Shown here in pieces: positions 10,374-44,435 of a DNA stretch of 44,435 bases (the first letter of the stretch is position 1; every line of letters begins with the position of its first letter). Origin of the DNA: a virus. Location of the stretch: IMG/VR virus record IMGVR_UViG_3300036832_001140, positions 1 to 44,435 of that record; one strand, 5' to 3'. Made by a program: the position numbers and the translations under genes. Below the pieces are notes generated by a model. It did not search any database. It had not been told where the DNA came from and worked only from the letters and a program-made list of their open reading frames with translations.

Positions 10374-11585
10374 CTACGGAGGAGCGGTGATGCCGATCAT
10401 CAAGCCGTGCGTCCGCTCGTGGGCGATCTCGTACGTCGCCTCGGTCATGTACTCGGCGTTGTACGAGTCCTTACCGGCGGGCTGGCGGTCGGTGAGCAGC
10501 TTCGTGTCCGCGTTGGTCATCGGACGCCGCTCGACGTAGTCCATGTCGACGAGGAAGAGGTAGCCCCCGTAGCCCTTGTTGGCGACCGGGAACTCCGACC
10601 ACTCCTTCTTGACGACGACGGGGATCTTGTAGCCGTAGGCGCCCGAGATGAAGGCGTCGACGTTGACCCCGTAGACGTTGCGGGGCGTGGGGTCCCACTG
10701 CGATCCCATGCCCGAGCGGTTCCAGTTCGACATGCACATCGTGGCCGTCGGCGAGGCGAAGATCACCTTGTTGGTGCTGCCGACCGCCATCACTGCCGCG
10801 ACGAAGGCGTCGAAGAACGTCGGCGAGAGCACGCCGTTGGAGTCCTGCTTGTTGGTCTGGATGAACTCGACCAACCCTCCGGCGGTGCCTCTCGGGTTAT
10901 TCTCCGGCGGGACGGCCGCAGCGAAGGAGCGGGCACCGAAGAAGCCAATCATCTCCCACTTCTTCTTGTGCTCGCGCGCCTTGCGCTTGGCCTCCTTCGC
11001 AGGCTCGTTACCGCCGTACTTGTTGATGTTCGTGTCGGTGCGGGTGAAGCCCCAGGTCGTGCGCGTGATCTGCGTGTAGTTGAAGCCGAGCACACGCGCG
11101 AGGTAGCGGGGCGTCGGGAAGTCCGACCCCTGTGGCTGGGCATCTCCCGTGACGAGCCAGGCGTCGCTCGCGTTGATCGCGGCGGCGGGGATATTGCCGA
11201 TCCCGCGAGCGACGGTGATCGTGTCGGTCGCGACGGAGACGACACGGGCCATCTCGCCCGTCCGCATGTTGCGGATCATGTCGTTCCCCATCACGATCTT
11301 GCCCTGCCCGGCGCTGAGCGGGAAGCTCGTATCGCCGACGAGCTGGGCGGCGGTGTTCGTAACGATCCTCGGGAAGTCCTCTTCCTCCAGCCAGTTGACC
11401 TTCTCCGAGGTGGCGACCCGCGACGGGGTCTGCGAGGTCATCGTCGTGAACTGAGTGTCGTCCGGGCGTAGCACCCGGATCTTCTCGTCCATGTCGATGA
11501 TGCGCTCTCCGGCGAACGAGGTCGCGGCAGACGGTCCGACCTGTGCTTCGGTCGCGACGTTGCCCTGGACGATGGTGCCAGCCAT
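10374..11585 (-). CDS. Major capsid protein (SU10-like, HK97 fold)
   Basis: This 403-residue protein has the expected size and features of SU10-type major head proteins. There is an N-terminal arm with ERIIDMDEKIRVL, a segment EKVNWLEEEDFPRI, a helical spine region (EPAKEAKRKAREHKKKWEMIGFFGA), and a long A-domain-like part ending in YLFLVDMDYVERRPM and EATYEIAHERTHGLMIGI. It follows the scaffold gene and precedes a hairpin, as expected for a highly expressed capsid gene. The ATG is preceded by GGGAGG. Confidence 0.85.
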   Translation of the reverse strand: MAGTIVQGNVATEAQVGPSAATSFAGERIIDMDEKIRVLRPDDTQFTTMTSQTPSRVATSEKVNWLEEEDFPRIVTNTAAQLVGDTSFPLSAGQGKIVMGNDMIRNMRTGEMARVVSVATDTITVARGIGNIPAAAINASDAWLVTGDAQPQGSDFPTPRYLARVLGFNYTQITRTTWGFTRTDTNINKYGGNEPAKEAKRKAREHKKKWEMIGFFGARSFAAAVPPENNPRGTAGGLVEFIQTNKQDSNGVLSPTFFDAFVAAVMAVGSTNKVIFASPTATMCMSNWNRSGMGSQWDPTPRNVYGVNVDAFISGAYGYKIPVVVKKEWSEFPVANKGYGGYLFLVDMDYVERRPMTNADTKLLTDRQPAGKDSYNAEYMTEATYEIAHERTHGLMIGITAPP

Positions 11586-11663: not shown

Positions 11664-12719
11664 CTAGCTCTTCGCGAACTCGGTCTCCAGATCCCCAAGG
11701 GTGAGGCCCGGCATGATCTCCACGTCGCGGGATGTCTCGCTGGGGGTACTGGGCGCGTTCGCCGACGAGGTTACAGCAGCCGCCGCCTTGGCGCTAGTCG
11801 ACTCGGCGCGGGCGCGCTTCTTGATCTCGCCGCGCCGCTCCTCGACGCTCGCCGACGACGCCTGCGCGATTTCAAAGATCGAGAGCAGCGCGCGCATCGA
11901 GACATCGACGTTCGCGGACTGCGCCTCCTGCACGAGGTGGTGGGTGGGGCCGAGGTTCTGGAAGACGGCGACCATCTGCGGCTCCCACTCGGCGAAGCCC
12001 GGCACCTTCGCCTTGAGCGCGTCGACGATCTCCTCGGTAGGCGCCTCGACCGGCTGGGGCACCGAGGACTGGTACTCGACCGAGTCGATCCACTGCCCGG
12101 CCCGGCCCGCGTTGAAGGGATCCTCGCGCGCCCAGTAGGTGCAGACGGCGCGAGCGAGGTCGAACTGGCCCGCGCCCAACGCCTGCTCGATGTAGCTGCC
12201 AGGGTTCGGGGTCGCCGCCGCGCCCTCGGCCCACTCGTGCTGCTCCTGGCTCAACGCGACCCCGCCCGAGAGCATCCGCGCCTGCACCATCTGCTGCTCC
12301 AGGGCCTGGTTACGCTGCCGCACCGCCGCGAGGTCTGTGCCCTGACGGCCGAAGGCCCGCCTCAGCTCGGCGGCTGCGCGAAGAGCCTTGACAGGATCGT
12401 TCTGGTACTGGGCGAGGTAGGCGAGGATCTCCACGTCGGAGACATCGAAACCATCGAGGGCGAGAGCCTCGACTCCCTCCTCCTCCTCAGCAGCGTCCCC
12501 TTCGTCCTCGTCCTCACCGGCCTGCTCTTCTCCTTCCTCGGGTTCTGCGGGTTGCGGGGTCTCCTCCCCCTCGTCTGGCTCGGGACCAGCCTCGACCTCT
12601 TCCTCGGGCTGCTCCTCCGGCTCGGCCTCCGACAGCGTCGGTTGGGGAACATCGACCACCTGCTCGTCTTCGTCGTCCCAGCCCTGTAGTAGCGACTCGG
12701 CCACGCTTATGTCACTCAC
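11664..12719 (-). CDS. Capsid scaffolding protein
   Basis: This 351-residue protein starts at GTG (12719), overlapping the preceding stop. The N-terminal 85 residues are extremely acidic (long Glu/Asp/Pro runs). The middle is helical with a coiled-coil stretch (LAAVRQRNQALEQQMVQARM), and the basic C-terminal region (EIKKRARAESTSAKAAAA) is the kind that contacts capsid protein. Position between portal and major capsid genes fits scaffold. No protease was recognised, so it is probably recycled or cleaved by an unknown enzyme. Confidence 0.75.
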   Translation of the reverse strand: MSDISVAESLLQGWDDEDEQVVDVPQPTLSEAEPEEQPEEEVEAGPEPDEGEETPQPAEPEEGEEQAGEDEDEGDAAEEEEGVEALALDGFDVSDVEILAYLAQYQNDPVKALRAAAELRRAFGRQGTDLAAVRQRNQALEQQMVQARMLSGGVALSQEQHEWAEGAAATPNPGSYIEQALGAGQFDLARAVCTYWAREDPFNAGRAGQWIDSVEYQSSVPQPVEAPTEEIVDALKAKVPGFAEWEPQMVAVFQNLGPTHHLVQEAQSANVDVSMRALLSIFEIAQASSASVEERRGEIKKRARAESTSAKAAAAVTSSANAPSTPSETSRDVEIMPGLTLGDLETEFAKS

Positions 12720-19900: not shown

Positions 19901-19925
19901 AGAGACTCCTTCCCAGAATGACGAA

Positions 19926-19967
19926 GGCGCCCCGAAGGGCGCCCTCGCTTCCCAACGCAAGGAGGCA
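19926..19967 (+). repeat. Hairpin-leader cassette E0 (orphan copy)
   Basis: A perfect 7-bp hairpin (GGCGCCC-CGAA-GGGCGCC, 19926-19943) is followed by GCTTCCCAACGCAAGGAGG, almost identical to the leaders before the genes at 25791 and 26589. No start codon lies at usable distance. The first ATG (19988) opens only a five-codon frame, MPDLA. The gene it once served appears to be missing. Here the outer base of the leader pairing is G-C (GCUUCC/GGAGGC) rather than U-A, which preserves pairing. Confidence 0.7.
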
Positions 19968-25346: not shown

Positions 25347-25720
25347 ATTTTAGTCCTAGACCATCGGCCAGGTAGAACCTAGACCAATGTCCGGGGCGGC
25401 AGGCTGTTCCGTCATGGCACATTGGGTCGGCAATCGCAGTCCTCGTTGTCGCCCGGCGCAGTCATCGAAAGCGTGGTCGGTACGGCGAGGCGAGATCCCA
25501 CAGCGTGAAGGGTGATGGCGCGGAACATGGCGCCGCCTGTACAGCTCGTGTCTCTCGGCCAGCTTTAGCTGGTAGGCGACAAGGATTCCTCCTCCTTGAC
25601 CCCTCGGGTGATTCCTTCCCGTTGCGCGTGGAACTGATGACCGGCGACGGCCGGAGCGCTGCTTGCAGCGCTGGCTTACGCAACGTGGATCATGACGCCC
25701 GAGGGAAAAGCCGAAACGAC
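25347..25720. promoter_or_regulatory. Gene-free control region with palindromes
   Basis: No coding sequence is supported here. Seen are a direct repeat CCTAGACCA at 25355-25363 and 25378-25386, a palindrome CCAGCT-TT-AGCTGG at 25559-25572, and AGCGCTGC-TT-GCAGCGCT at 25655-25672. The region lies between a leftward gene and the rightward cassette operon, so promoters for both directions and operators are expected. I could not define a convincing -35/-10 pair. Confidence 0.45.
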
Positions 25721-25790
25721 GGAGGGAAGCTTGCGCTGCCGAGCGCTTGCGAGCTTCTCCCTCCGGTCTTCCCTACGCAAGGAGGATTCA
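25721..25790 (+). repeat. Hairpin-leader cassette E1
   Basis: The longest hairpin of the family: GGAGGGA-AGCTTGC pairs with GCGAGCT-TC-TCCCTCC (25721-25764, two-base bulge). The leader then runs GGTCTTCCCTACGC and AAGGAGGATTCA before the ATG at 25791. UCUUCC (25767-25772) can pair with GGAGGA (25781-25786). Confidence 0.75.
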
Positions 25791-26021
25791 ATGCCAGTGC
25801 TGACAACCGTCCCCCGTGACGTGTACGGCGAGTTTCCGCCTGGCGACTACGTCGCCATCCACGCCGATGCAGCGCGGCCGTTCGCTGTCCGAGTGCCCTA
25901 CCGCGTGGCGCTCCAGTCGCAGCGCGACGGTACACCGTTCGCACACTGGTCGCTTCTGACCGATGCCGAGCGGGACCTCGTCTGGTCGAACCGTGACCGG
26001 ATCGTGGCAGGGCGCTTTTAG
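25791..26021 (+). CDS. First gene of the cassette operon, unknown
   Basis: This 76-residue product starts at an ATG behind AAGGAGGATTCA. It has a beta-rich N-terminal half (VYGEFPPGDYVAIHADAARP, FAVRVPYRVALQSQ) and a C-terminal helix DAERDLVWSNRDRIV. Its stop codon lies in the loop of the next cassette hairpin. No family recognised. Confidence 0.6.
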   Translation: MPVLTTVPRDVYGEFPPGDYVAIHADAARPFAVRVPYRVALQSQRDGTPFAHWSLLTDAERDLVWSNRDRIVAGRF

Positions 26022-26052
26022 CGCCCCGTCTTCCCAAACAAGGAGGAATCAC
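26010..26052 (+). repeat. Hairpin-leader cassette E2
   Basis: GGGCGC-TTTTA-GCGCCC (26010-26026) holds the stop codon TAG of the upstream gene partly in the loop (26019-26021). The leader is GTCTTCCCAAACAAGGAGG. UCUUCC can pair with GGAGGA. Confidence 0.75.
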
Positions 26053-26556
26053 ATGGACACCGTCACCATCGAGGGTCTGACGAAGTCAGACATCAACGCT
26101 CTGCGGCTGGCCGACGACGTGTATGCCGTCTTCTACGAAGACGCCTACCTGCTCCGCTGCATCAAGCGGCCGACGTTCGCCGAGCGGGAGCGCAACCCCT
26201 TCGCCGATGACGTGCGGATCGAGGTCCCGGTCACCGGCTCGATCACCGTTTACGGCGCCGACGGCGGTAGCAACTTCGCCGCCACCGAGTCGGTCACGGC
26301 TTGCTTTGCAAGCCTGTGGGATTCGACCGGCATCTGGCAGGTCGTCAAGCCTGGCGACCGCGTCAAGCTCCGCTTCGCGGCGAACAACTCGACCGACAAC
26401 ATTCGGGCAGCGAACTACGTTCGCGACTCGGTCAGCGTCGAGGTCATCCGCAAGGCGGACGTGAACGGCCGCAAGCCGCTCAAGTTCGCGGGCGGCGACT
26501 ACGTCGGACCGAACAACTCGGCTCGCTTCGTCAGGAGCCACACACACGGCCTTTAG
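26053..26556 (+). CDS. Cassette-operon protein, unknown
   Basis: This 167-residue protein is beta-rich, with a helical start (GLTKSDINALRLADDVYAVF) and strands such as DVRIEVPVTGSITVYG and VVKPGDRVKLRFAA. It ends in polar, basic KPLKFAGGDYVGPNNSARFV. Its stop codon lies at the loop of cassette E3. No family recognised. Confidence 0.6.
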   Translation: MDTVTIEGLTKSDINALRLADDVYAVFYEDAYLLRCIKRPTFAERERNPFADDVRIEVPVTGSITVYGADGGSNFAATESVTACFASLWDSTGIWQVVKPGDRVKLRFAANNSTDNIRAANYVRDSVSVEVIRKADVNGRKPLKFAGGDYVGPNNSARFVRSHTHGL

Positions 26557-26588
26557 GCCGTGTCTTCCCTAACGCAAGGAGGATTCTC
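26544..26588 (+). repeat. Hairpin-leader cassette E3
   Basis: ACACGGCC-TTTA-GGCCGTGT is a perfect 8-bp stem (26544-26563). The upstream TAG stop (26554-26556) sits in the loop. The leader CTTCCCTAACGCAAGGAGG follows. UCUUCC (26563-26568) and GGAGGA (26578-26583) can pair. Confidence 0.75.
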
Positions 26589-26864
26589 ATGAACTACGGC
26601 ACTGCATGGGTCTGCACTGACTGCTACTTCGCCCATCACTACGGCGCCATCGAAGTCGACGGCCAGTGGTTCGCTGGCGAGTCAGACACACCCTGCGACC
26701 GTGAGCCGCTGGCCCTCCTTGAGGGCTTTGACCTCGCTGACAACACGGATTCGGAGACCGGCGAGGGCATCGACGAGTTCTCGTGGCGCTCGTGCGACGG
26801 CTGCGGCTCGACGCTCGGCGGTTCCCGCGAGCGGCTGGCGCTGTTCCCCCTCACGACGGCTTAG
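26589..26864 (+). CDS. Cys-rich protein with CDGCGSTLGGSR motif
   Basis: This 91-residue protein has three Cys pairs: WVCTDCYFAHH near the start, CDRE in the middle and SCDGCGSTLGGSRERLALFP near the end. The last motif and the preceding EFSW segment are a recurrent signature in small actinobacterial phage and plasmid proteins. It probably binds one or two zinc ions. No activity is known to me. Its TAG lies in the loop of cassette E4. Confidence 0.65.
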   Translation: MNYGTAWVCTDCYFAHHYGAIEVDGQWFAGESDTPCDREPLALLEGFDLADNTDSETGEGIDEFSWRSCDGCGSTLGGSRERLALFPLTTA

Positions 26865-26896
26865 GCCGTCGTCTTCCAACACAAGGAGGAACCACC
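26853..26896 (+). repeat. Hairpin-leader cassette E4
   Basis: ACGACGGC-TTAG-GCCGTCGT (26853-26872), with the upstream TAG (26862-26864) forming most of the loop. The leader TCTTCCAACACAAGGAGGA follows. The stem sequence differs from all other copies but pairs perfectly. Confidence 0.75.
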
Positions 26897-27286
26897 ATGA
26901 ACGCTCAAGCTCTGCTTGACACGATCGCCACGGCCTACATCCAGTGTGCGCTCTGGTCGTCGGTCGACGACGAAGGGGAGCCGCTGGACGGCCTCTATGA
27001 GGTCTGGGACCTCAGCGATGAGGCGACGACCTCGATCATGGAGGAGATCGGCGACTTCCTCGACCTGCTCGCAAGCGAGGGCATCGACTGGGACGCAGGC
27101 TGGACGGCCGAGCAGCTCGGGCACGACTTCTGGCTGACCCGCAACGGTCACGGTGCTGGCTTCTGGGACCGCTACGGCGGCGCCGATCTCCGCGAGGATC
27201 TCGGCGACCTGCTCACGAAGTGGGCCAAGTCGTTCGGCAGCTCGGATCTCTACGTCGGCGACGACGGCAAGCTCTACCTCTCGTAA
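26897..27286 (+). CDS. Cassette-operon protein of a widespread phage family
   Basis: This 129-residue acidic protein has a helical N-terminus and a characteristic C-terminal half: LGHDFWLTRNGHGAGFWDRY, then LTKWAKSFGSSDLYVGDDGK and LYLS. I have seen this HDFWLTRNGHGAGFWDR pattern in many unrelated phages, without a known function. Its TAA lies in the loop of cassette E5. Confidence 0.65.
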   Translation: MNAQALLDTIATAYIQCALWSSVDDEGEPLDGLYEVWDLSDEATTSIMEEIGDFLDLLASEGIDWDAGWTAEQLGHDFWLTRNGHGAGFWDRYGGADLREDLGDLLTKWAKSFGSSDLYVGDDGKLYLS

Positions 27287-27316
27287 GAGAGGTCTTCCCT
27301 ACGGCAAGGAGGAATC
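27276..27316 (+). repeat. Hairpin-leader cassette E5
   Basis: ACCTCTC-GTAA-GAGAGGT (27276-27293) carries the upstream TAA in its loop. The leader TCTTCCCTACGGCAAGGAGG follows and serves only a seven-codon frame (27317). Confidence 0.75.
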
Positions 27317-27340
27317 ATGAGCTTGGACAGCTCCAGGTAG
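27317..27340 (+). CDS. Seven-codon minigene MSLDSSR
   Basis: A full cassette with ideal spacing precedes ATG-AGC-TTG and a TAG seven codons later. Thirty bases on, cassette E6 starts. It is either a leader peptide, or the remnant of a gene deleted between two cassettes by recombination. Confidence 0.4.
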   Translation: MSLDSSR

Positions 27341-27370
27341 CCGAGCGAAGCCTCCTTAACCAGCTAGACA

Positions 27371-27410
27371 ACGCCCTTCGGGGCGTCTTCCCTAACCAAG
27401 GAGGAACCGA
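27371..27410 (+). repeat. Hairpin-leader cassette E6
   Basis: ACGCCC-TTCG-GGGCGT (27371-27386) has a C(UUCG)G tetraloop and is very stable. The leader TCTTCCCTAACCAAGGAGGA follows. No stop codon lies in the loop here. Confidence 0.75.
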
Positions 27411-27596
27411 ATGTCTGCATCACCGAAAGGCGCGTTCACTGTCGTCGTCACCTGGCTGCTTGTCTGGGCCGGTGGCGTCTCGATCCTGTTCTCGCTCCAC
27501 GCAAGCCCGTTCATCGGCATCGTCGTCCCGACGATCGTCGCGAGCGTGATCGCGGGCAAGCTCGCCCACGGTCTCGACGCGATGGGCGAGAAGTGA
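27411..27596 (+). CDS. Small membrane protein (two spans)
   Basis: This 61-residue protein has two hydrophobic segments (AFTVVVTWLLVWAGGVSILF and FIGIVVPTIVASVIAGKLA) separated by a short polar turn. It has no signal-cleavage site. The next gene overlaps its stop (GTGA). A role in the host membrane, such as superinfection exclusion, is possible, but no motif supports it. Confidence 0.6.
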   Translation: MSASPKGAFTVVVTWLLVWAGGVSILFSLHASPFIGIVVPTIVASVIAGKLAHGLDAMGEK

Positions 27597-27793
27597 CTGC
27601 CCTGGTCGACCCGCGCGAGCTGGTCGGCTCCGTCGAGGCGGCGAAGATCGCCGGGATCGCGACTGGCACGCTCAAGGTGCGACGGCAGCGTGGGCAGACG
27701 CCCGAGCCGCTCGTCGTGCTCGCGTGCGGGCCGCTCTGGCTCCGCTCGACCATCGAGCAGTGGGCGGCAGATCTCGCCGCCCAGCGCCCCTAA
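27593..27793 (+). CDS. Small helix-turn-helix protein
   Basis: The GTG at 27593 overlaps the preceding stop, giving 66 residues. LVGSVEAAKIAGIATGTLKV then RRQRGQTPEPLVV is a MerR/AlpA-like helix-turn-helix followed by a wing (GPLWLRSTIEQWAADL). It resembles small excisionase or regulator proteins. The stop lies in the loop of cassette E7. Confidence 0.65.
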   Translation: MTALVDPRELVGSVEAAKIAGIATGTLKVRRQRGQTPEPLVVLACGPLWLRSTIEQWAADLAAQRP

Positions 27794-27824
27794 CGGGGCG
27801 TCTTCCCAACAAGGAGGCATCACG
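27785..27824 (+). repeat. Hairpin-leader cassette E7
   Basis: CGCCCC-TAAC-GGGGCG (27785-27800), with the upstream TAA in the loop. The leader TCTTCCCAACAAGGAGGC follows. Here the outer leader pair would be U-C, so only five bases of the Shine-Dalgarno can be paired. Confidence 0.75.
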
Positions 27825-28112
27825 ATGAGCAGTGTGCGGGCGTTCCAACCGCGCAAGTTCGATCCACCGCGCTTCGTCGCCGAAGACGAGGCCGAGCTGG
27901 AAGAGCTGGAAGGCAGCTTCGTCGACGCCGGTCAGTGCGACGGCTGCGGCAACTCGACCTACCGGATCTCGTGCGACCGCACCAGGGCGTTCCCGCGCTG
28001 GTATGCGACCTGCGCGATCGACCCGGAAGGGTCGTCCGAATTCCGGCACCCGAAGCCCTGTGGCAACGTCTACCGGATCGAGCTGTACGACGAGACCCTC
28101 GTCGAGTTCTAA
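27825..28112 (+). CDS. Cys-rich cassette-operon protein
   Basis: This 95-residue protein has an acidic helix (EDEAELEELEGSFVDAGQ) followed by four cysteines in a zinc-ribbon-like layout (CDGCGNSTYRISC..CAID..PCGNVY). No family recognised. It is followed by cassette E8, separated from its stop codon by two bases. Confidence 0.6.
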   Translation: MSSVRAFQPRKFDPPRFVAEDEAELEELEGSFVDAGQCDGCGNSTYRISCDRTRAFPRWYATCAIDPEGSSEFRHPKPCGNVYRIELYDETLVEF

Positions 28113-28114
28113 GC

Positions 28115-28159
28115 GACCCGTCCCGAGAGGGGCGGTCTTCCCAAACAAGGAGGAATCGC
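28115..28159 (+). repeat. Hairpin-leader cassette E8
   Basis: GACCCGTCCC-GAGA-GGGGCGGTC (28115-28137) pairs with one bulged C and one G-U pair. The leader TCTTCCCAAACAAGGAGGA follows. The GAGA loop is GNRA-type. Confidence 0.7.
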
Positions 28160-28450
28160 ATGAAGGGCATCACCGAGATCGTGCTCCCCGAGCACGGTAT
28201 GCGCATGCTCGCGTTCACGCTGATCCCCGAGCGGATCGGCCAGGCGATCGTGCTCGTCGAGAGCGTCGGCGTCGAGGACTTCGACCGCGAGTGGGTTACC
28301 TGGGCGATCTTCGCCGACGGCGAGACGGTCAACCGCTTCGACCACTGCGAGTGGGGGCACTACTTCGACAACGCCGAGGACGCCTGGAACGACTACGTCA
28401 ACCGGGCGATCAACCCCCGGATCGTGCCGTTGCGGCGGGCGAAACCGTGA
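28160..28450 (+). CDS. Cassette-operon protein, unknown
   Basis: This 96-residue protein begins MKGITEIVLPEHGMRMLAFT and continues with LVESVGVEDFDREWVTWAIF and FDHCEWGHYFDNAEDAWNDY. It is alpha/beta, with several aromatic and acidic residues. The next gene overlaps its stop. No family recognised. Confidence 0.6.
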   Translation: MKGITEIVLPEHGMRMLAFTLIPERIGQAIVLVESVGVEDFDREWVTWAIFADGETVNRFDHCEWGHYFDNAEDAWNDYVNRAINPRIVPLRRAKP

Positions 28451-28605
28451 CCCACATGGAGGCGCTCGCCCGCGCCGCCTGGCAGAGCTGGGGCGCGTAC
28501 GCGAAGTGGACGGTCTGTACCGCCTGCAAGGAGTGGCGCTACTCCCACTCCAAGGGCGGCGAGCGCTACGTTTGCGTCGACTGCTTCGACCAGGGTCACA
28601 AGTAG
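28447..28605 (+). CDS. Small zinc-ribbon protein
   Basis: The GTG at 28447 overlaps the preceding stop, giving 52 residues. CTACKEWRYSHSKGGERYVC then VDCFDQGHK is a compact four-cysteine zinc ribbon. Such single-ribbon proteins often bind RNA polymerase or nucleic acid. Cassette E9 begins directly after its TAG. Confidence 0.6.
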   Translation: MTHMEALARAAWQSWGAYAKWTVCTACKEWRYSHSKGGERYVCVDCFDQGHK

Positions 28606-28608
28606 GAT

Positions 28609-28646
28609 CCGCCCTTCGGGGCGGTCTTCCCAATACAAGGAGGAGC
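28609..28646 (+). repeat. Hairpin-leader cassette E9
   Basis: CCGCCC-TTCG-GGGCGG (28609-28624) has the C(UUCG)G tetraloop. The leader TCTTCCCAATACAAGGAGGA follows with a short spacing to ATG 28647. Confidence 0.75.
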
Positions 28647-28838
28647 ATGAGCACGACCGCAAGCACGATCACGATCCTCGCCACGACGGCGGCGCTTGTC
28701 TTCGGCGCGATCGGGATCCAGACCTACTGGATCGTCCGCACGCTGGACAGGATCGACGCCCGACTGGACCGCATCGAAGGAGTGTTGATGAGCTTCAGCG
28801 AGCGGATCACGCGACTGGAGGAGCACACGAATGGCTGA
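28647..28838 (+). CDS. Membrane-anchored coiled-coil protein
   Basis: This 63-residue protein has an N-terminal transmembrane segment (TITILATTAALVFGAIGIQT) followed by a coiled coil (VRTLDRIDARLDRIEGVLM, ERITRLEEH). The layout resembles haemolysin-XhlA-like and phage membrane-associated coiled-coil proteins. Function is unknown. Confidence 0.6.
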   Translation: MSTTASTITILATTAALVFGAIGIQTYWIVRTLDRIDARLDRIEGVLMSFSERITRLEEHTNG

Positions 28839-28998
28839 GCAACCCGAGGGCAAGTCGATGCAGGAGCTGCGCCGACTCGTCGCCGAGAGTGACGCCCGCT
28901 ACCGCCGGATCGGCGAGGTCTGGGGCGATCTCTCGGACGAGGACCAGGAGCGGCTCGCGTCCGACGCCGAGGCGAGCGCGTCAGAGAACGAAGACTGA
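28831..28998 (+). CDS. Small acidic helical protein
   Basis: The ATG at 28831 overlaps the previous gene by eight bases, giving 55 residues. The sequence MAEQPEGKSMQELRRLVAES followed by DLSDEDQERLASDAEASASE is fully helical and acidic. It is the last gene of the cassette operon, followed by a hairpin. No family recognised. Confidence 0.55.
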   Translation: MAEQPEGKSMQELRRLVAESDARYRRIGEVWGDLSDEDQERLASDAEASASENED

Positions 28999-37230: not shown

Positions 37231-37668
37231 ATGCTTGAGATTCGGGATCTTGAGCTGACCCCGCTCCAGGTTCGCGACATAGAAGACTCCGATCCTGCTC
37301 TCGTCGCTTCCTGGCTGGCGGCGGCGAGCGAGCCTGAGATCCGCAGCCCAACCGGCTACTTCTTGGCGGGCATGCGTAGCGGCGAGCCGCCCTGGGGGCC
37401 GAACCGCGAGCACGCCCAGAACCTACGTCTCGCCGAGCGCTGGGTCGAGAACGTGGGGCTGCTCTACGACCAAGAGGAGGCCGTGCTCGACGAACTGTTC
37501 GGACGCAACGGCCTGCTGCGTCACCACGCCGGGGACGTGCAGCTCCAGAAGCGCATGCTCTTACTTTGGGCCGCGAACCGCCCGCGCGGCGAGCAGGTCG
37601 AGCGCGAGCAGATCGACCGCGCGCAGCGCAACAGCGCGACCTACTTCCTGCTGCGAAAGAAGCCGTGA
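37231..37668 (+). CDS. Protein before the excisionase gene, unknown
   Basis: This 145-residue protein is helical and charged. Segments include LQVRDIEDSDPALVASWLAA, NLRLAERWVENVGLLYDQEE and VEREQIDRAQRNSATYFLLR. Its stop overlaps the following GTG. Similar proteins occur next to small helix-turn-helix genes in other actinophages; I do not know a function. Confidence 0.6.
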   Translation: MLEIRDLELTPLQVRDIEDSDPALVASWLAAASEPEIRSPTGYFLAGMRSGEPPWGPNREHAQNLRLAERWVENVGLLYDQEEAVLDELFGRNGLLRHHAGDVQLQKRMLLLWAANRPRGEQVEREQIDRAQRNSATYFLLRKKP

Positions 37669-37949
37669 GCTTGGACGAATCCCTACGCGAGCTGATCCAG
37701 CCGATCGTCGACGAGGCGGTCGAGCGGAAGCTGCGCGAGGAGATCCAACGCCTCCAACCACCGCATCGCTGGCTGACGATCGTCCAGGCTGCCGAACGGT
37801 TCGGGATCCAGGAGGCGGCGGTCCGTCAACGGATCAGAAGAGGCCAGCTCGCGTCACGCATGCTCGACGGGCGGCGATACGTCGACATCGAGGAGCACGA
37901 CCGTCGTCTGGACGAGCAGCTACCATGCCCGCCTCAGCTTACAAACTGA
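37665..37949 (+). CDS. xis: Excisionase-like helix-turn-helix protein
   Basis: The GTG at 37665 overlaps the preceding stop, giving 94 residues. The C-terminal half, WLTIVQAAERFGIQEAAVRQ RIRRGQLASRMLDGRRYVDI (split here), is a MerR/excisionase-type helix-turn-helix with a wing. The N-terminal part is a helical coil. It is encoded directly before the integrase, the usual place for a recombination directionality factor. A transcriptional regulator role is the alternative. Confidence 0.65.
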   Translation: MSLDESLRELIQPIVDEAVERKLREEIQRLQPPHRWLTIVQAAERFGIQEAAVRQRIRRGQLASRMLDGRRYVDIEEHDRRLDEQLPCPPQLTN

Positions 37950-37984
37950 CCCCGACGGACCAGCCGCCGGGGCCATCGACACAA

Positions 37985-37999
37985 GGAGGTGCAAGCTCC
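37985..37999 (+). promoter_or_regulatory. Integrase ribosome-binding site in a small hairpin
   Basis: GGAG (37985-37988) can pair with CTCC (37996-37999) around GTGCAAG. The spacing of GGAGG to the ATG at 38002 is 12 bases, longer than usual. Weak, structured initiation would keep integrase levels low. Confidence 0.4.
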
Positions 38000-38001
38000 C
38001 G

Positions 38002-39225
38002 ATGTCAGCGTCAGACTACGTGGTCGAGAAGACCACGCTGATCTCAGGAAGAGGCCAGGGGAACCTGGAGGAGTGGCTCTTCAGGACAGGCAGGATCGTC
38101 CATAAGAGCCGGGTCTACATCGGCAACAAGCAGCCGGTCAAGACCTGGGAGGGCCTCACGCGCACCGAGGCCAAGCGGAAGCACAACGACCGCCTGGTCA
38201 AGACGGCGAACGGTGAGAAGCCTGCTCAGCGGCTCCTGCTGAGCGACGTGATGGTCGATGCCTACGAGCATCTCGACAGCCTCGCGAAACGGAACGAAGC
38301 CTCTCGCGGGACCGTGAAGAACTACCGCGCGGCCTGGAAGAAGAGGATCGCGACCCAACCGATCGCCAGTATGCGGCTCGACCAGATCGACCGAGCAGCT
38401 TGTCTGCGGTTCCTGCGCGACCTTCGCAAGAACGTCGATCTCGGGACCTCGACCCAGAACGGCACCGTCAGTGCGCTCCGCAACGTTCTGCACTACGCAC
38501 GCGATCTGGACTACATGTCGGTCGACCCCTTCTCGGGCATCCCCAGTCGCGAGTTCCCGCCTCAGAAGGATCCGAATCCAAGACGGCTGTCTCGCCGGTT
38601 GAGCAACGGCGAGTCGCAACAGCTCCTCGCGGCGGCGCGATCCGAGGCGTTCGTCGAGCAGACGGACACGCTCTTCACCAATGCGATCATCCTCCTCCGC
38701 TACCAAGGCCCGCGCAGCAGCGAGGCCCTCGGCCTCCATTGGCGAGAGATCCACCTGATCGACGAGCAGATCAGCTTCGTCGGCCAGCTCGCTCGCGACC
38801 AGAAGGTCAACGACCCTGTCGTGATCCGGCCACCCAAGAACGGAGAGAACGGCTTTCGCAAGCCGTCGATGTTCCCCGAAGTCTGGTCGGCGTTGAACGA
38901 CCAGCTCCTTCACGAGCAAGGCAAGGGGCGGGGACGCCCTGACGACCTCGTCTTCACGACCGCCACCGGCCAGCCGATGAGTCGTCACTCTCTCCTCCTG
39001 GCCGTCAGGCGTGCGGCGGCTCTTGCCGGGCTAGGACGAGTCGTCCCGAAGGATCTCCGGTCGAGCTTCTTCACGGCGGGCGTGAACGCGGGCATCTCCC
39101 CCGCCGAGCTGTCCGAGATGGGCGGCAACACCGCAGCCGTGGTCGAGCGCTTCTACGCTGGCCCGATGCGCACCGCTGAGCAATCGAAGAAGAACGTCAC
39201 GAGGTTCGTCGCCAGCGGCTTCTGA
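38002..39225 (+). CDS. int: Tyrosine integrase
   Basis: This 407-residue site-specific recombinase has an N-terminal arm-binding/core-binding part (about 75-190, with the SAM-like helix bundle TVKNYRAAWKKRI...) and a catalytic domain. Seen are Arg238 (GPRSSEALGL), Lys candidates at 279-287 and Arg353 in KDLRSSFFTAG. The nucleophile is Tyr385 (VVERFYAG). The HxxR box reads KDLR, so the first catalytic His is Lys. The attP lies directly downstream, with a terminator between. It integrates and, with the excisionase, excises the phage. Confidence 0.9.
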   Translation: MSASDYVVEKTTLISGRGQGNLEEWLFRTGRIVHKSRVYIGNKQPVKTWEGLTRTEAKRKHNDRLVKTANGEKPAQRLLLSDVMVDAYEHLDSLAKRNEASRGTVKNYRAAWKKRIATQPIASMRLDQIDRAACLRFLRDLRKNVDLGTSTQNGTVSALRNVLHYARDLDYMSVDPFSGIPSREFPPQKDPNPRRLSRRLSNGESQQLLAAARSEAFVEQTDTLFTNAIILLRYQGPRSSEALGLHWREIHLIDEQISFVGQLARDQKVNDPVVIRPPKNGENGFRKPSMFPEVWSALNDQLLHEQGKGRGRPDDLVFTTATGQPMSRHSLLLAVRRAAALAGLGRVVPKDLRSSFFTAGVNAGISPAELSEMGGNTAAVVERFYAGPMRTAEQSKKNVTRFVASGF

Positions 39226-41471: not shown

Positions 41472-44435
41472 TTACTGCCCCGCCGCTGCGCGCTGGGCGG
41501 CGACGGTGGGGTCGGGCTTCTTGATCGGGGCGCCGAGCCAGGCCCAAAGGGCCGTCTCGCGATTCCGCTGCGGGTACAGCTTGGACGGGCCTCGCGGCCA
41601 GATGAGCTGCGAGGTCGGGAGGCTGGTGAAGATGTTTTCGGTGCCCTTGGCGATCATCGTCAGCGGGTTGGCCGTGCCGCCGTGCGCCGTCTCCTTTGCG
41701 TACTCGTCGAGTGCGCCCTGGATGAACGGGTTGAGGCCGAGGGTCGAAACGTCCTGGTCGGAGCCGCGCACGAGCTGCTCCAGGGTCGACCACGGGTTGA
41801 GGCCGCTCGTCGAGAGAATCCGTCCGTGGCTGAGCGGGATTCCACCCTGTAGGTAGCTCGGGAGCACGGCGTTGAGCGCCGACATGTTGTTCATCCCCAT
41901 CTTCCCGAGCTGGAAGAGCAGGTTGGCCCGGAGCGGGTTGTTGACGGCGAGGTGGAAGGTCGCCGAGAGGATCGCCCTGTACCAGGCGTAGAAGGGCAGC
42001 GCGGTGCGGAAGACGTTTTGCTCGATCCCGCTCAGGTCGCGGTAGTTACCGAGGCTGCGGTCGACCTCCCTGGAGACGTAACGCTGGAAGGCAAGCCCGC
42101 CCTGGCCCTGGTGGAGCCTCTCGGCTGCGGCCTCAAAGCTGCGCGTGTCCTTGGGCATCGAGCGGTAGACGGCTTTGAACTCGGGCGAGCGGCGGGTGAA
42201 GTTGCGGATCAGCAGGCGTCTCAGATCGCCCTCGGCGACCTTGGCCGTGAGCTTCGGGATCGCGCTCGTGGTCGCGCCAAACGCCTTACCCGCCTTGCCG
42301 GAGAAGCCGCGCAGGTAGCCCTGGGCGCCCGGCGCCTGGGTGTAACCGAAGCTGCCGAAGCGTTCCATCTGCTCGGGGTAGTGGCGCTGATAGAAGCTCT
42401 CCCTCGGCGGTGGCGCCACCGGCTGGCGCGCCGATTCGTCGCCGACCTCCGAGAATGGGATCCTGTGCTCGGGAGTCTCCAGCCCCCTGCCGTAGCGGAG
42501 GAGGCCAGCGCCGGGTGCAGCGGCGCCGACGCCAAGCGCTCGGGCCGCGTCGGTGGTCAACTGCGCCCGCAGGGCGGGTGGCGTGGCGTGGTCGTCGAGG
42601 AGCGCCTTCGCCGTGCGCCAACCGTGATGCTCCAGCACCGACATGAACAGGTCGCGGAACATGCCCGTGCCGCCGACCTTCGCGGCCGTCATCAGACCGT
42701 TGCCGATCAGGTTATTGGTCAGGAAGCCGGGCCGCGTCCCGAGCAGGAGCGCCCGCCAGATCCGTATCGGGTACTTGTTGAAGTAGTAGAGCGGCGTCGA
42801 CATGCGGGTGAACTCGCCGGTCGCCGCCCTCGCGGCGCTCTTGTTGATGATGTGGTACTCGCCCGTCGCGGGGTCGAGTCCCTCGGCCGGGTTGTCCGTC
42901 GTAAACCCCTTCTTGACCAACTCGGAGTGCTGAAGATCCTCGGCGTTGGGCATGATCCGTGCCAGCGCCTGCGAGCTGGGGACGCCGCTCGCACCACCAG
43001 CCTCCTCGGCAGCCTGCGCACCCTTGAGCGGGACCTCACCCTCGGCCCTGATCGTGTAGGGGACGTGGAAGTTGAGGTCGGGACGTAGGTAGGTGAATCC
43101 CTTGGGCAGCGTCTGGCCGGGCAGCGCCTGGATGTCGTCCCAGGAGAGGCGCACCGACCCCTGCTTGAGCGCGTTATGGATCTCGTTCGCCTTCAGCCAC
43201 TTGTTACGACGTAGCCATTCCGGTCCGAGCGTGTCCCTGCCCAGCACGAGCTTGCCCGCCCCGAAGAGGATCCCCCGATTCCGCTTCAGAGCACCGGGCT
43301 TGGCGACCGGCGCCTTGCCCATGCCGCTGGAGGCGAACGGGTGTGAGCCGACCTTCTCTGGCTGCATCGAGTGCGGGAAGTAGTAGGGGTCGCCCGTGAT
43401 CCCGATCTCGTGCTCGGGTAGCCCGGACTGCTTGGAGACGATCGTTTTGAAGCGGCCGGGTCGTTCGTACTCGTTCGTCAGTACCTTGCCACCGGCTTTG
43501 AACAGCTCGGCGCCCGACTGGGAGAGGGCGCGCATGACCGGCTCGGCGCGCAGCATCTTCTTACTCGGGTCGAGCGCCAGCTCGCGCACCGCCGGAGTCA
43601 ACTCCGCTTCAGCCGGTGTGCCCGCCCAATGCTCGGCGAGCACGTCGGGCTTCACGTCGAGGGCGCGGACGTGGAGCGCCGTCCACTCGCTCGGGTTGAG
43701 CGACTTGGTCACCTTCGCGTACTGGTCGAAGACCGGCATGCGCATGTAGGCGCTGCGGTTCGTGTCGCTTCTGATCACCTTCCCCCACCGTCTCAGCTCG
43801 GTCTGGAAGAGGTGGAGCCTGCTGTCGGGGTTGAAGCGGGTGACCTTCTGCACGGCGGCGGCGCCGAGGTTGCGCAGGGGCTTGGTCGAGGTGATGTCCT
43901 TGACCACCGGGCCACCCGTGCCCGGCTGGTAGACCTCGCGCGGGGAGCGGGTGAGGACTTCGCCCCGCTCGCCGAGCTTCGCCAGCTTGCCCACGTCCGC
44001 GAGCTTGCCCGCTTGGGCGGCGGCGCCAGCGCCAACGTCGGCGACGGTGAGCGCGTCGAGGATCGGCTGCCACGGGTCCTTGTAGATGTGCCCGCCCAAG
44101 TCGTGACCATAGAAGCCCTTGTATTGCTGCGCTGCCCCCTTGACGATCGCCTGGGAGGTACTCCGCGTCTTGTTTGCTTCGGCGCGAGCCTTGCCGACGT
44201 TGCCCTCCAAGAGATAGCCGACCGCTCTCGCCTCGTGGTAGGGGAGCGAGCCGAGCGTCACCGCCGCCGGGCCGAGACCGAGGACGTGCTCGCCGAGGCT
44301 CGTCCCGGTGTTCTCGATGAACTGGGCGCCCGAATACTTCTTCAGGTCGCCCCAGAAACCACCGCCGCCCTTCTTCGGAGCTGAGCGGGCACCTGCAGTC
44401 GTGGTGCCGAAGAGATCGGGAGCGTCCCCTCCCCC
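41472..44435 (-). CDS. Large virion protein (main part; start lies at 234 after circularisation)
   Basis: This is the bulk of a 1013-residue protein that begins at 234 on the left end. It is alpha-rich, with amphipathic helices and a hydrophobic C-terminal third. The segment VFRTALPFYAWYRAILSATF followed by HLAVNNPLRANLLFQLGKMG recalls the C-terminal region of very large phage proteins thought to be internal virion/ejection proteins. Other segments (RIWRALLLGTRPGFLTNNLI) are membrane-active in appearance. It probably leaves the head with the DNA. Family is not certain. Confidence 0.75.
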   Translation of the reverse strand, partial: GGGDAPDLFGTTTAGARSAPKKGGGGFWGDLKKYSGAQFIENTGTSLGEHVLGLGPAAVTLGSLPYHEARAVGYLLEGNVGKARAEANKTRSTSQAIVKGAAQQYKGFYGHDLGGHIYKDPWQPILDALTVADVGAGAAAQAGKLADVGKLAKLGERGEVLTRSPREVYQPGTGGPVVKDITSTKPLRNLGAAAVQKVTRFNPDSRLHLFQTELRRWGKVIRSDTNRSAYMRMPVFDQYAKVTKSLNPSEWTALHVRALDVKPDVLAEHWAGTPAEAELTPAVRELALDPSKKMLRAEPVMRALSQSGAELFKAGGKVLTNEYERPGRFKTIVSKQSGLPEHEIGITGDPYYFPHSMQPEKVGSHPFASSGMGKAPVAKPGALKRNRGILFGAGKLVLGRDTLGPEWLRRNKWLKANEIHNALKQGSVRLSWDDIQALPGQTLPKGFTYLRPDLNFHVPYTIRAEGEVPLKGAQAAEEAGGASGVPSSQALARIMPNAEDLQHSELVKKGFTTDNPAEGLDPATGEYHIINKSAARAATGEFTRMSTPLYYFNKYPIRIWRALLLGTRPGFLTNNLIGNGLMTAAKVGGTGMFRDLFMSVLEHHGWRTAKALLDDHATPPALRAQLTTDAARALGVGAAAPGAGLLRYGRGLETPEHRIPFSEVGDESARQPVAPPPRESFYQRHYPEQMERFGSFGYTQAPGAQGYLRGFSGKAGKAFGATTSAIPKLTAKVAEGDLRRLLIRNFTRRSPEFKAVYRSMPKDTRSFEAAAERLHQGQGGLAFQRYVSREVDRSLGNYRDLSGIEQNVFRTALPFYAWYRAILSATFHLAVNNPLRANLLFQLGKMGMNNMSALNAVLPSYLQGGIPLSHGRILSTSGLNPWSTLEQLVRGSDQDVSTLGLNPFIQGALDEYAKETAHGGTANPLTMIAKGTENIFTSLPTSQLIWPRGPSKLYPQRNRETALWAWLGAPIKKPDPTVAAQRAAAGQ
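44280..44435. repeat. Terminal direct repeat, right copy
   Basis: Same sequence as 1-156 except T instead of C at 44309. See the left copy. Confidence 0.9.

What the first reader, a model, noticed from the sequence alone, without database searches (positions are those of the whole stretch)
25721..28646. Nine intergenic hairpin-leader cassettes in one operon (plus an orphan copy at 19926)
Seen directly: every gene or gene pair in this operon is preceded by a hairpin of 6-14 bp, then a conserved leader of the form TCTTCCC(T)AA(c)(g)CAAGGAGGA and the start codon. The hairpin stems have different sequences at each site (for example ACGACGGC/GCCGTCGT, ACCTCTC/GAGAGGT, CCGCCC/GGGCGG) but always pair. 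Pairing kept despite sequence change is strong evidence for an RNA structure. In concept this resembles the start-associated sequences and their extended inverted-repeat forms in cluster K mycobacteriophages, but the sequence is unrelated. It may set up uniform translation, transcript processing or partial termination for each gene.
Basis: seen in the sequence. Interest (0 to 1): 0.87.

Follow-up and report, generated by a model that had tools for sequence, protein, structure and literature searches.

The report
Hairpin-gated gene starts in soil phages
In an uncultured phage and its relatives, almost every small gene of one operon begins with the same RNA module, a stable hairpin at the end of the previous gene followed by a shared ribosome-binding leader; in this phage's branch the leader also folds shut over the ribosome-binding site, so each gene probably has its own standard translation start with a gate.

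Summary
In detail: nine copies in the operon plus one at 19926, where shuffles give 0.01. Relatives extend it. G001 and G002 (IMG/VR) carry 13 and 16 copies of the same leader. Six more distant relatives carry 50 copies with a different leader (CUYGRUCA...GGAG), some in front of homologous genes. Hairpin 1 is an RNA structure: arms pair far better within a copy than between copies, all four Watson-Crick pairs occur, and GNRA/UNCG/UNAC tetraloops are enriched on the sense strand. (1) In the window's lineage the leader is a second hairpin: UCUUCC pairs with GGAGGA and hides the Shine-Dalgarno in all 39 copies. (2) The upstream stop codon lies 9-11 nt before UCUUCC (inside the hairpin loop) or 21-27 nt before it. 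(3) Leader type is uniform within a genome, and the UCUUCC type marks one clade, as if many copies changed together. Best reading: a standard translation-start module for each cistron, hairpin 1 insulating and hairpin 2 gating. No copy shows an intrinsic-terminator signal. It is not a cluster K SAS: that consensus is absent. The orphan has no start codon and is unexplained. Function is inferred; there are no expression data.

The parts
25721..25790 (+). Cassette 1: long imperfect hairpin (about 25720-25765), UCUUCC leader, SD; no + strand gene was called directly upstream; gene start 25791
26008..26052 (+). Cassette 2: hairpin GGGCGC...GCGCCC with the upstream UAG, leader, SD; gene start 26053
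26543..26588 (+). Cassette 3: hairpin ACACGGCC-UUUA-GGCCGUGU with the upstream UAG, leader, SD; gene start 26589
26852..26896 (+). Cassette 4: hairpin ACGACGGC-UUAG-GCCGUCGU with UAG in the loop, leader, SD; gene start 26897 (phrog_1915)
27274..27317 (+). Cassette 5: hairpin ACCUCUC-GUAA-GAGAGGU with UAA in a GNRA loop, leader, SD; followed only by a 7-codon ORF (probable deletion scar)
27371..27410 (+). Cassette 6: hairpin ACGCCC-UUCG-GGGCGU, leader, SD; gene pair 27411/27593
27783..27824 (+). Cassette 7: hairpin GCGCCCC-UAAC-GGGGCGU with UAA in a UNAC loop, leader, SD; gene start 27825
28118..28159 (+). Cassette 8: hairpin CCGUCCC-GAGA-GGGGCGG (GNRA), upstream stop just before the stem, leader, SD; gene pair 28160/28456
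28609..28646 (+). Cassette 9: hairpin CCGCCC-UUCG-GGGCGG, upstream stop before the stem, leader, SD; gene pair 28647/28831
19923..19965 (+). Orphan copy: hairpin (CGAA loop, i.e. UUCG on the - strand) plus leader and SD, no start codon in reach; syntenic copies in G001, G002 and G009
25791..28998 (+). Operon of about 12 small genes (76, 167, 91, 129, [7], 61, 66, 95, 96, 49, 63, 55 aa), mostly of unknown function

Best explanation
Each cassette is an RNA module that gives every cistron (or overlapping gene pair) its own standard translation start. Hairpin 1 is short, very stable and free in sequence. It sits at the stop codon of the previous gene and walls the leader off from the upstream coding RNA and from drifting ribosomes (insulation). 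Behind it comes a short linker and a strong SD (AAGGAGGA) 5-9 nt before the start codon. In the lineage of this window the leader also carries UCUUCC, which pairs with GGAGGA to form hairpin 2, directly abutting hairpin 1, so the SD is closed at a uniform cost of about 5-6 kcal/mol. Inferred step: a ribosome that terminates inside hairpin 1 (stop codon 9-11 nt before UCUUCC) melts hairpin 1, brings its leading edge to UCUUCC and loosens hairpin 2, so that a new 30S can bind. Where the stop lies 21-27 nt before UCUUCC, hairpin 1 stays largely ahead of the ribosome and the next gene is more insulated. Shown here: both predicted structures, their positions, their conservation and the leader switch between lineages. 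Inferred: insulation, gating, and opening by termination.
For: Within-copy versus cross-copy pairing in two lineage sets, 39 and 50 copies; pair types at every stem position and a C-G closing pair in 33/36 and 36/47; GNRA/UNCG/UNAC loops in 31 of 56 cassette tetraloops against 76 of 638 background hairpins, sense-strand biased. Hairpin 1 ends within 0-4 nt of the TTCC anchor in 36 copies. SD unpaired probability 0.08 in this lineage, 0.38 in other genes of this phage, 0.36 in the other lineages. SD opening cost 4.9-6.1 kcal/mol against 3.9 (controls) and 2.2-3.7 (other lineages). Consensus hairpin 2 at -5.3 kcal/mol, kept when C becomes U in five copies. Stop codon 9-11 or 21-27 nt before the leader and never between, wherever the preceding gene runs from its own cassette to the next one. 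Cassettes stand at junctions of at least 29 nt; overlapping or 5-nt junctions lack them. Also found at 5' ends with no upstream gene (cassette 1; G002 7396), so the element goes with the downstream gene.
Against: No expression data exist. The other lineages keep hairpin 1 but do not hide the SD, so gating cannot be the general function. Hairpin 2 hardly varies, so covariation cannot support it. The orphan keeps leader and SD without a gene. A nuclease site or a protein-binding site would show much the same anatomy, and the uniform leader within a genome points to something recognising its sequence.
Confidence: 0.45

Rival explanations
1. RNA processing and stability element: the operon transcript is cut at the leader next to each hairpin; the hairpin then protects the 3' end of the upstream mRNA and the cut frees the 5' end of the next one.
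For: Stable UUCG/GNRA hairpins with a conserved sequence just 3'; T4 and phage 7-11 CUUCGG-type intergenic hairpins are linked to mRNA stability or processing (PMC8948821); the leader changes between lineages as a nuclease site could.
Against: The hairpin is locked to the downstream leader and also occurs in 5' leaders with no upstream gene; in this lineage the leader is paired, not single-stranded.
Confidence: 0.2
2. RNA regulon: a phage (or host) RNA-binding protein reads hairpin plus leader at every gene and switches the whole operon, as RegA does for T4 early genes (own knowledge); leader type and protein coevolve.
For: Leader type is uniform within a genome but differs between genomes, some copies standing before homologous genes; the UCUUCC type marks one supported clade; the orphan keeps leader and SD without a gene in four genomes.
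Against: No candidate protein identified; sequence-free stems argue against recognition of the stem; homogenisation by recombination could give the same pattern.
Confidence: 0.2
3. DNA-level repressor sites spread along the operon, like cluster A stoperators or the Corndog 17-bp repeats (PMC4351075).
For: Many oriented copies in short intergenic regions; an orphan copy without a gene.
Against: Stem sequence is free while pairing is kept; sense-strand tetraloop bias; spacing inside the leader varies by several nt.
Confidence: 0.07
4. Weak intrinsic terminators or attenuators between genes.
For: GC hairpin followed by UCUU or UUUU in this lineage.
Against: No cassette passes the terminator scan; leaders of the other lineages have few U.
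Confidence: 0.05
5. RNA thermometer of the FourU type controlling all genes together.
For: UCUU/UUUU opposite the SD; SD opening cost in the window falls from 7.8 kcal/mol at 20 C to 4.6 at 50 C.
Against: Control genes also decline, less steeply (4.8 to 3.2); only five of the 33 aligned copies have UUUU.
Confidence: 0.03

Closest known systems
Ribosome termination structure (RTS; Chemla et al. 2020, PMC7518266)
   Same: Stable mRNA structure at or just after the stop codon, found where the next gene is at least 25 nt away, proposed to insulate against re-initiation
   Different: RTS is a statistical tendency without a defining sequence; here every copy abuts a genome-specific conserved leader, the stop is often inside the loop, and the element also stands in front of genes with no upstream gene
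Start-associated sequences and extended SAS of cluster K mycobacteriophages (PMC3203893)
   Same: Oriented copies (11-19 per genome) just upstream of start codons of non-structural genes, an SD inside the repeat, upstream inverted repeats, lineage-specific variants, function unknown
   Different: SAS consensus absent here; ESAS arms have a conserved sequence that does not support RNA pairing, whereas these stems vary freely and always pair
T4 intergenic CUUCGG hairpins (Tuerk et al. 1988, as discussed in PMC8948821)
   Same: Very stable UUCG-type hairpins between phage genes
   Different: Here GNRA and UNAC loops are also used, stop codons sit in loops, and a conserved leader plus SD follows directly
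RNA-unfolding translational coupling (review PMC12548453)
   Same: SD hidden in structure next to the upstream stop codon
   Different: The reviewed cases are individual gene pairs; here one uniform two-hairpin design is repeated up to 16 times in a genome

Membership tests
Cluster K SAS/ESAS | 13-bp GGGATAGGAGCCC close to the start codon (up to 2 mismatches) | tested here: not met
   0 matches in the window
Cluster K SAS/ESAS | 17-bp inverted repeats of conserved sequence | tested here: not met
   34 distinct 3' arms in 39 copies; stems mostly 6-12 bp
Cluster K SAS/ESAS | Oriented copies just upstream of start codons of non-structural genes | tested here: met
   nine copies upstream of starts; the orphan is the exception
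Ribosome termination structure | Next gene at least 25 nt away | tested here: met
   31-47 nt at the seven window junctions measured
Ribosome termination structure | 40-nt window at or below -6 kcal/mol close to the stop | tested here: met
   -15.6 to -20.1; not discriminating in this GC-rich genome, as non-cassette junctions reach -16.5 to -21.6
Ribosome termination structure | Folding stronger than codon-preserving randomisation (negative delta-LFE) | not tested
   only mononucleotide shuffles were run (36 of 39 copies with at least 5 pairs against 8.4 shuffled)
Ribosome termination structure | Measured effect on re-initiation | not testable with these tools
   needs reporters
Intrinsic terminator | GC hairpin followed by a U-rich tract | tested here: not met
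   no cassette passes the scan
T4-type CUUCGG hairpin | C(UUCG)G loop on a stem between genes | tested here: inconclusive
   met only by a subset: 8 of 56 tetraloop copies are UNCG
Coupled gene pair by RNA unfolding | SD hidden in structure within reach of the upstream ribosome | tested here: met
   predicted SD unpaired probability 0.08; stop 9-11 nt from UCUUCC in about half of the junctions; lineage-specific
Coupled gene pair by RNA unfolding | Downstream translation depends on upstream translation | not testable with these tools
   needs reporters or ribosome profiling
FourU RNA thermometer | Four U opposite the SD with a sharp melting transition | tested here: inconclusive
   UUUU in five of 33 copies; gradual change between 20 and 50 C
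Rfam families | Match at the gathering score | tested here: not met
   no match in the window

The most novel reading that the evidence does not exclude
An undescribed phage RNA regulon: every cistron of one operon carries a hairpin-leader tag that is read by one trans-acting factor, and tag and factor change together between lineages (CUCRGUCA type to UCUUCC type on one branch), the UCUUCC type turning it into a two-hairpin translation gate.
Probability: 0.2. Interest if true: 0.8.

Novelty: new variant of a known kind. Interest (0 to 1): 0.6.

Why it matters
It shows natural operons in which hairpin-insulated, SD-gated starts are repeated up to 16 times in one genome and kept while the stem sequence drifts. 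That makes two open questions testable: what intergenic hairpins at stop codons do in nature, and how a whole set of leaders changes together. It also offers natural parts for insulating genes in synthetic operons, and a signature for finding such operons in uncultured phages.

Tried and rejected
Host identification failed: no portal relative in 84,980 genomes with the single protein or with the 13-row alignment, and the integrase only reaches streptococcal phages at 24% identity. Cultured phages: leader probes gave only short or weak single hits in 50,697 records, none with the repeated pattern. Terminator and sigma-70 promoter scans found nothing in the operon that fits the cassettes. Phage RNA polymerase promoters were considered: no polymerase found by PHROGs or Pfam among the proteins searched, and the spacing inside the leader varies. 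Column-wise covariation with the alignment tools does not suit hairpin 1, because stem length varies while the 3' end is fixed, so a cross-copy permutation was used instead. A scan for relatives of one operon protein found nothing. 54 of the 58 stretches from the first leader scan hold a single match, as chance would give; the other four come from two contigs. Leader motifs for G032, G038, G003 and L131 did not hold up on inspection. No covariance model was built.
Full report
OBSERVATION. The pattern TTCC-N(3-8)-CAAGGAGG occurs ten times in the window, all on the + strand; shuffles give 0.01 on average. Nine lie in 25769-28643 and one at 19949. The window is an IMG/VR virus record of 44,435 bases with an SU10-type capsid, a portal, a terminase and a tyrosine integrase, far from cultured phages. 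Each copy has an abutting hairpin upstream, all different.

Folding shows that the leader is not single-stranded: UCUUCC pairs with GGAGGA, a second hairpin that usually begins 0-1 nt after the first. Consensus folding of 33 aligned copies gives this hairpin at -5.3 kcal/mol; in five copies C becomes U and the pair is kept as U-G. It does not covary, because it hardly varies. Its predicted effect is clear: mean SD unpaired probability is 0.08 in 39 copies, 0.38 in 28 other genes of the same phage and 0.36 in 50 copies of other lineages; the leader alone folds at -4.9 against -1.2 kcal/mol when shuffled. The cost of opening the SD is 4.9-6.1 kcal/mol against 3.9 and 2.2-3.7.

RELATIVES. A pattern scan of viral contigs gave two multi-copy relatives, G001 with 13 copies and G002 with 16. 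Portal homologues at 61-79% identity gave 47 loci. The exact leader is confined to G000, G001, G002 and G009. Other members carry hairpin plus a different leader: CUCGGUCAACC in G016, G044, G040 and, mixed with CUCGGUCAAUCC, G031; CUCGAUCA in G029; CUCGGUCAC in G015; CUCAGUCAUC in L106; and CACCACCAC in G045. G012, about 47 kb, shows none. Four gene families of the operon carry cassettes in both lineage sets, with different leaders: G000_27803 with G016_6200 (54%) and G040_12758 (53%), G000_26874 with G031_22282 (59%), G000_28627 with G016_7044 (63%), and more weakly G002_15635 with G029_11553 (39%). In the portal tree the UCUUCC type falls in one clade (100/100), with the CUCAGUCAUC genome in the neighbouring pair (95/95), so the CUCRGUCA type is probably older and many copies changed on one branch (direction inferred, root drawn at midpoint). 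Contigs are often fragments, so absence is weak evidence.

HAIRPIN 1 IS AN RNA STRUCTURE. Arms of the same copy pair at -13.7 kcal/mol on average; arms dealt between copies at -7.2 (sd 0.49, best of 10,000 deals -9.4). The second set gives -12.6 against -8.6 (sd 0.35, best -10.1). Related copies are not independent, but the stems are nearly all different (34 and 42 distinct 3' arms). Positions 2-5 of the stem show all four Watson-Crick pairs in the first set. At least five contiguous pairs occur in 36 of 39 copies against 8.4 in shuffles. GNRA, UNCG or UNAC loops make 31 of 56 tetraloops against 76 of 638 in the background, their reverse complements only 4 of 56, two of them orphans. That points to the sense RNA.

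POSITION OF THE STOP CODON. Reading each gene from its own cassette, the stop lies 9-11 nt or 21-27 nt before UCUUCC and nowhere between; the start follows the stop by 29-33 or 41-49 nt (the remaining cases have a second gene, or a scar, in between). The first class places the stop in the loop (e.g. UAAC, GUAA, UUAG), the second just upstream of the stem. Stems are GC-rich, so absence of stops in the arms is partly expected. Junctions that overlap or are 5 nt apart have no cassette.

MECHANISM. From textbook footprints (own knowledge), a ribosome with the stop codon in its A site covers about 11-12 nt from the first base of the stop. In the first class its leading edge would therefore reach UCUUCC and hairpin 1 would be melted; in the second it would end within hairpin 1. 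I infer that hairpin 1 insulates, that hairpin 2 gates, and that termination in the loop loosens the gate. Transcription termination is unlikely: no cassette passes the terminator scan. Processing or a regulatory protein remain possible; the uniform, lineage-specific leader and the orphan favour something that reads the sequence. I give the start-module reading 0.45.

THE ORPHAN. It is syntenic in G000, G001, G002 and G009, between the leftward tail gene and the rightward genes, without a start codon in reach. Its hairpin loop is CGAA in G000, G002 and G009, i.e. UUCG on the other strand. Whether it is a 5' leader, a decoy or a relic is open.

KNOWN SYSTEMS. The closest concepts are the ribosome termination structure (PMC7518266), cluster K SAS/ESAS (PMC3203893; K4 survey PMC12699233), T4-type CUUCGG hairpins (PMC8948821) and RNA-unfolding coupling (PMC12548453). 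None that I read combines a sequence-free hairpin at the stop codon with a genome-specific leader repeated across an operon. The papers library is open-access only, so a description I could not read may exist.

Noticed in passing
window 27293-27410: Cassettes 5 and 6 lie 93 nt apart with only a 7-codon ORF between; the sequence before cassette 6 (CCAGCTAGACAACGCCCTTCGGGGCGT) matches the end of a 95-aa gene in G002, which suggests a deleted gene with its start and end left behind.
   Followed up: partly
window 19923-19965; G001, G002 and G009 at the syntenic place: Orphan hairpin-leader-SD with no start codon in reach, conserved in four genomes between divergent genes.
   Followed up: partly
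G045 (reverse strand), 37354-38970: A relative with a different repeated leader, CACCACCACCAC plus SD, behind one or two hairpins.
   Followed up: partly
window 26897-27286: Operon gene of family phrog_1915 with homologues in 391 cultured phage records, mostly mycobacteriophages and coliphages; function unknown.
   Followed up: no
window 41472-44261, - strand: 929-aa protein without any PHROG or Pfam match in a temperate phage with an SU10-type capsid protein.
   Followed up: no
L165 (G001), e.g. 12269-12307 and 11364-11402, - strand: Some copies have UUUU opposite the SD, like FourU thermometers.
   Followed up: partly
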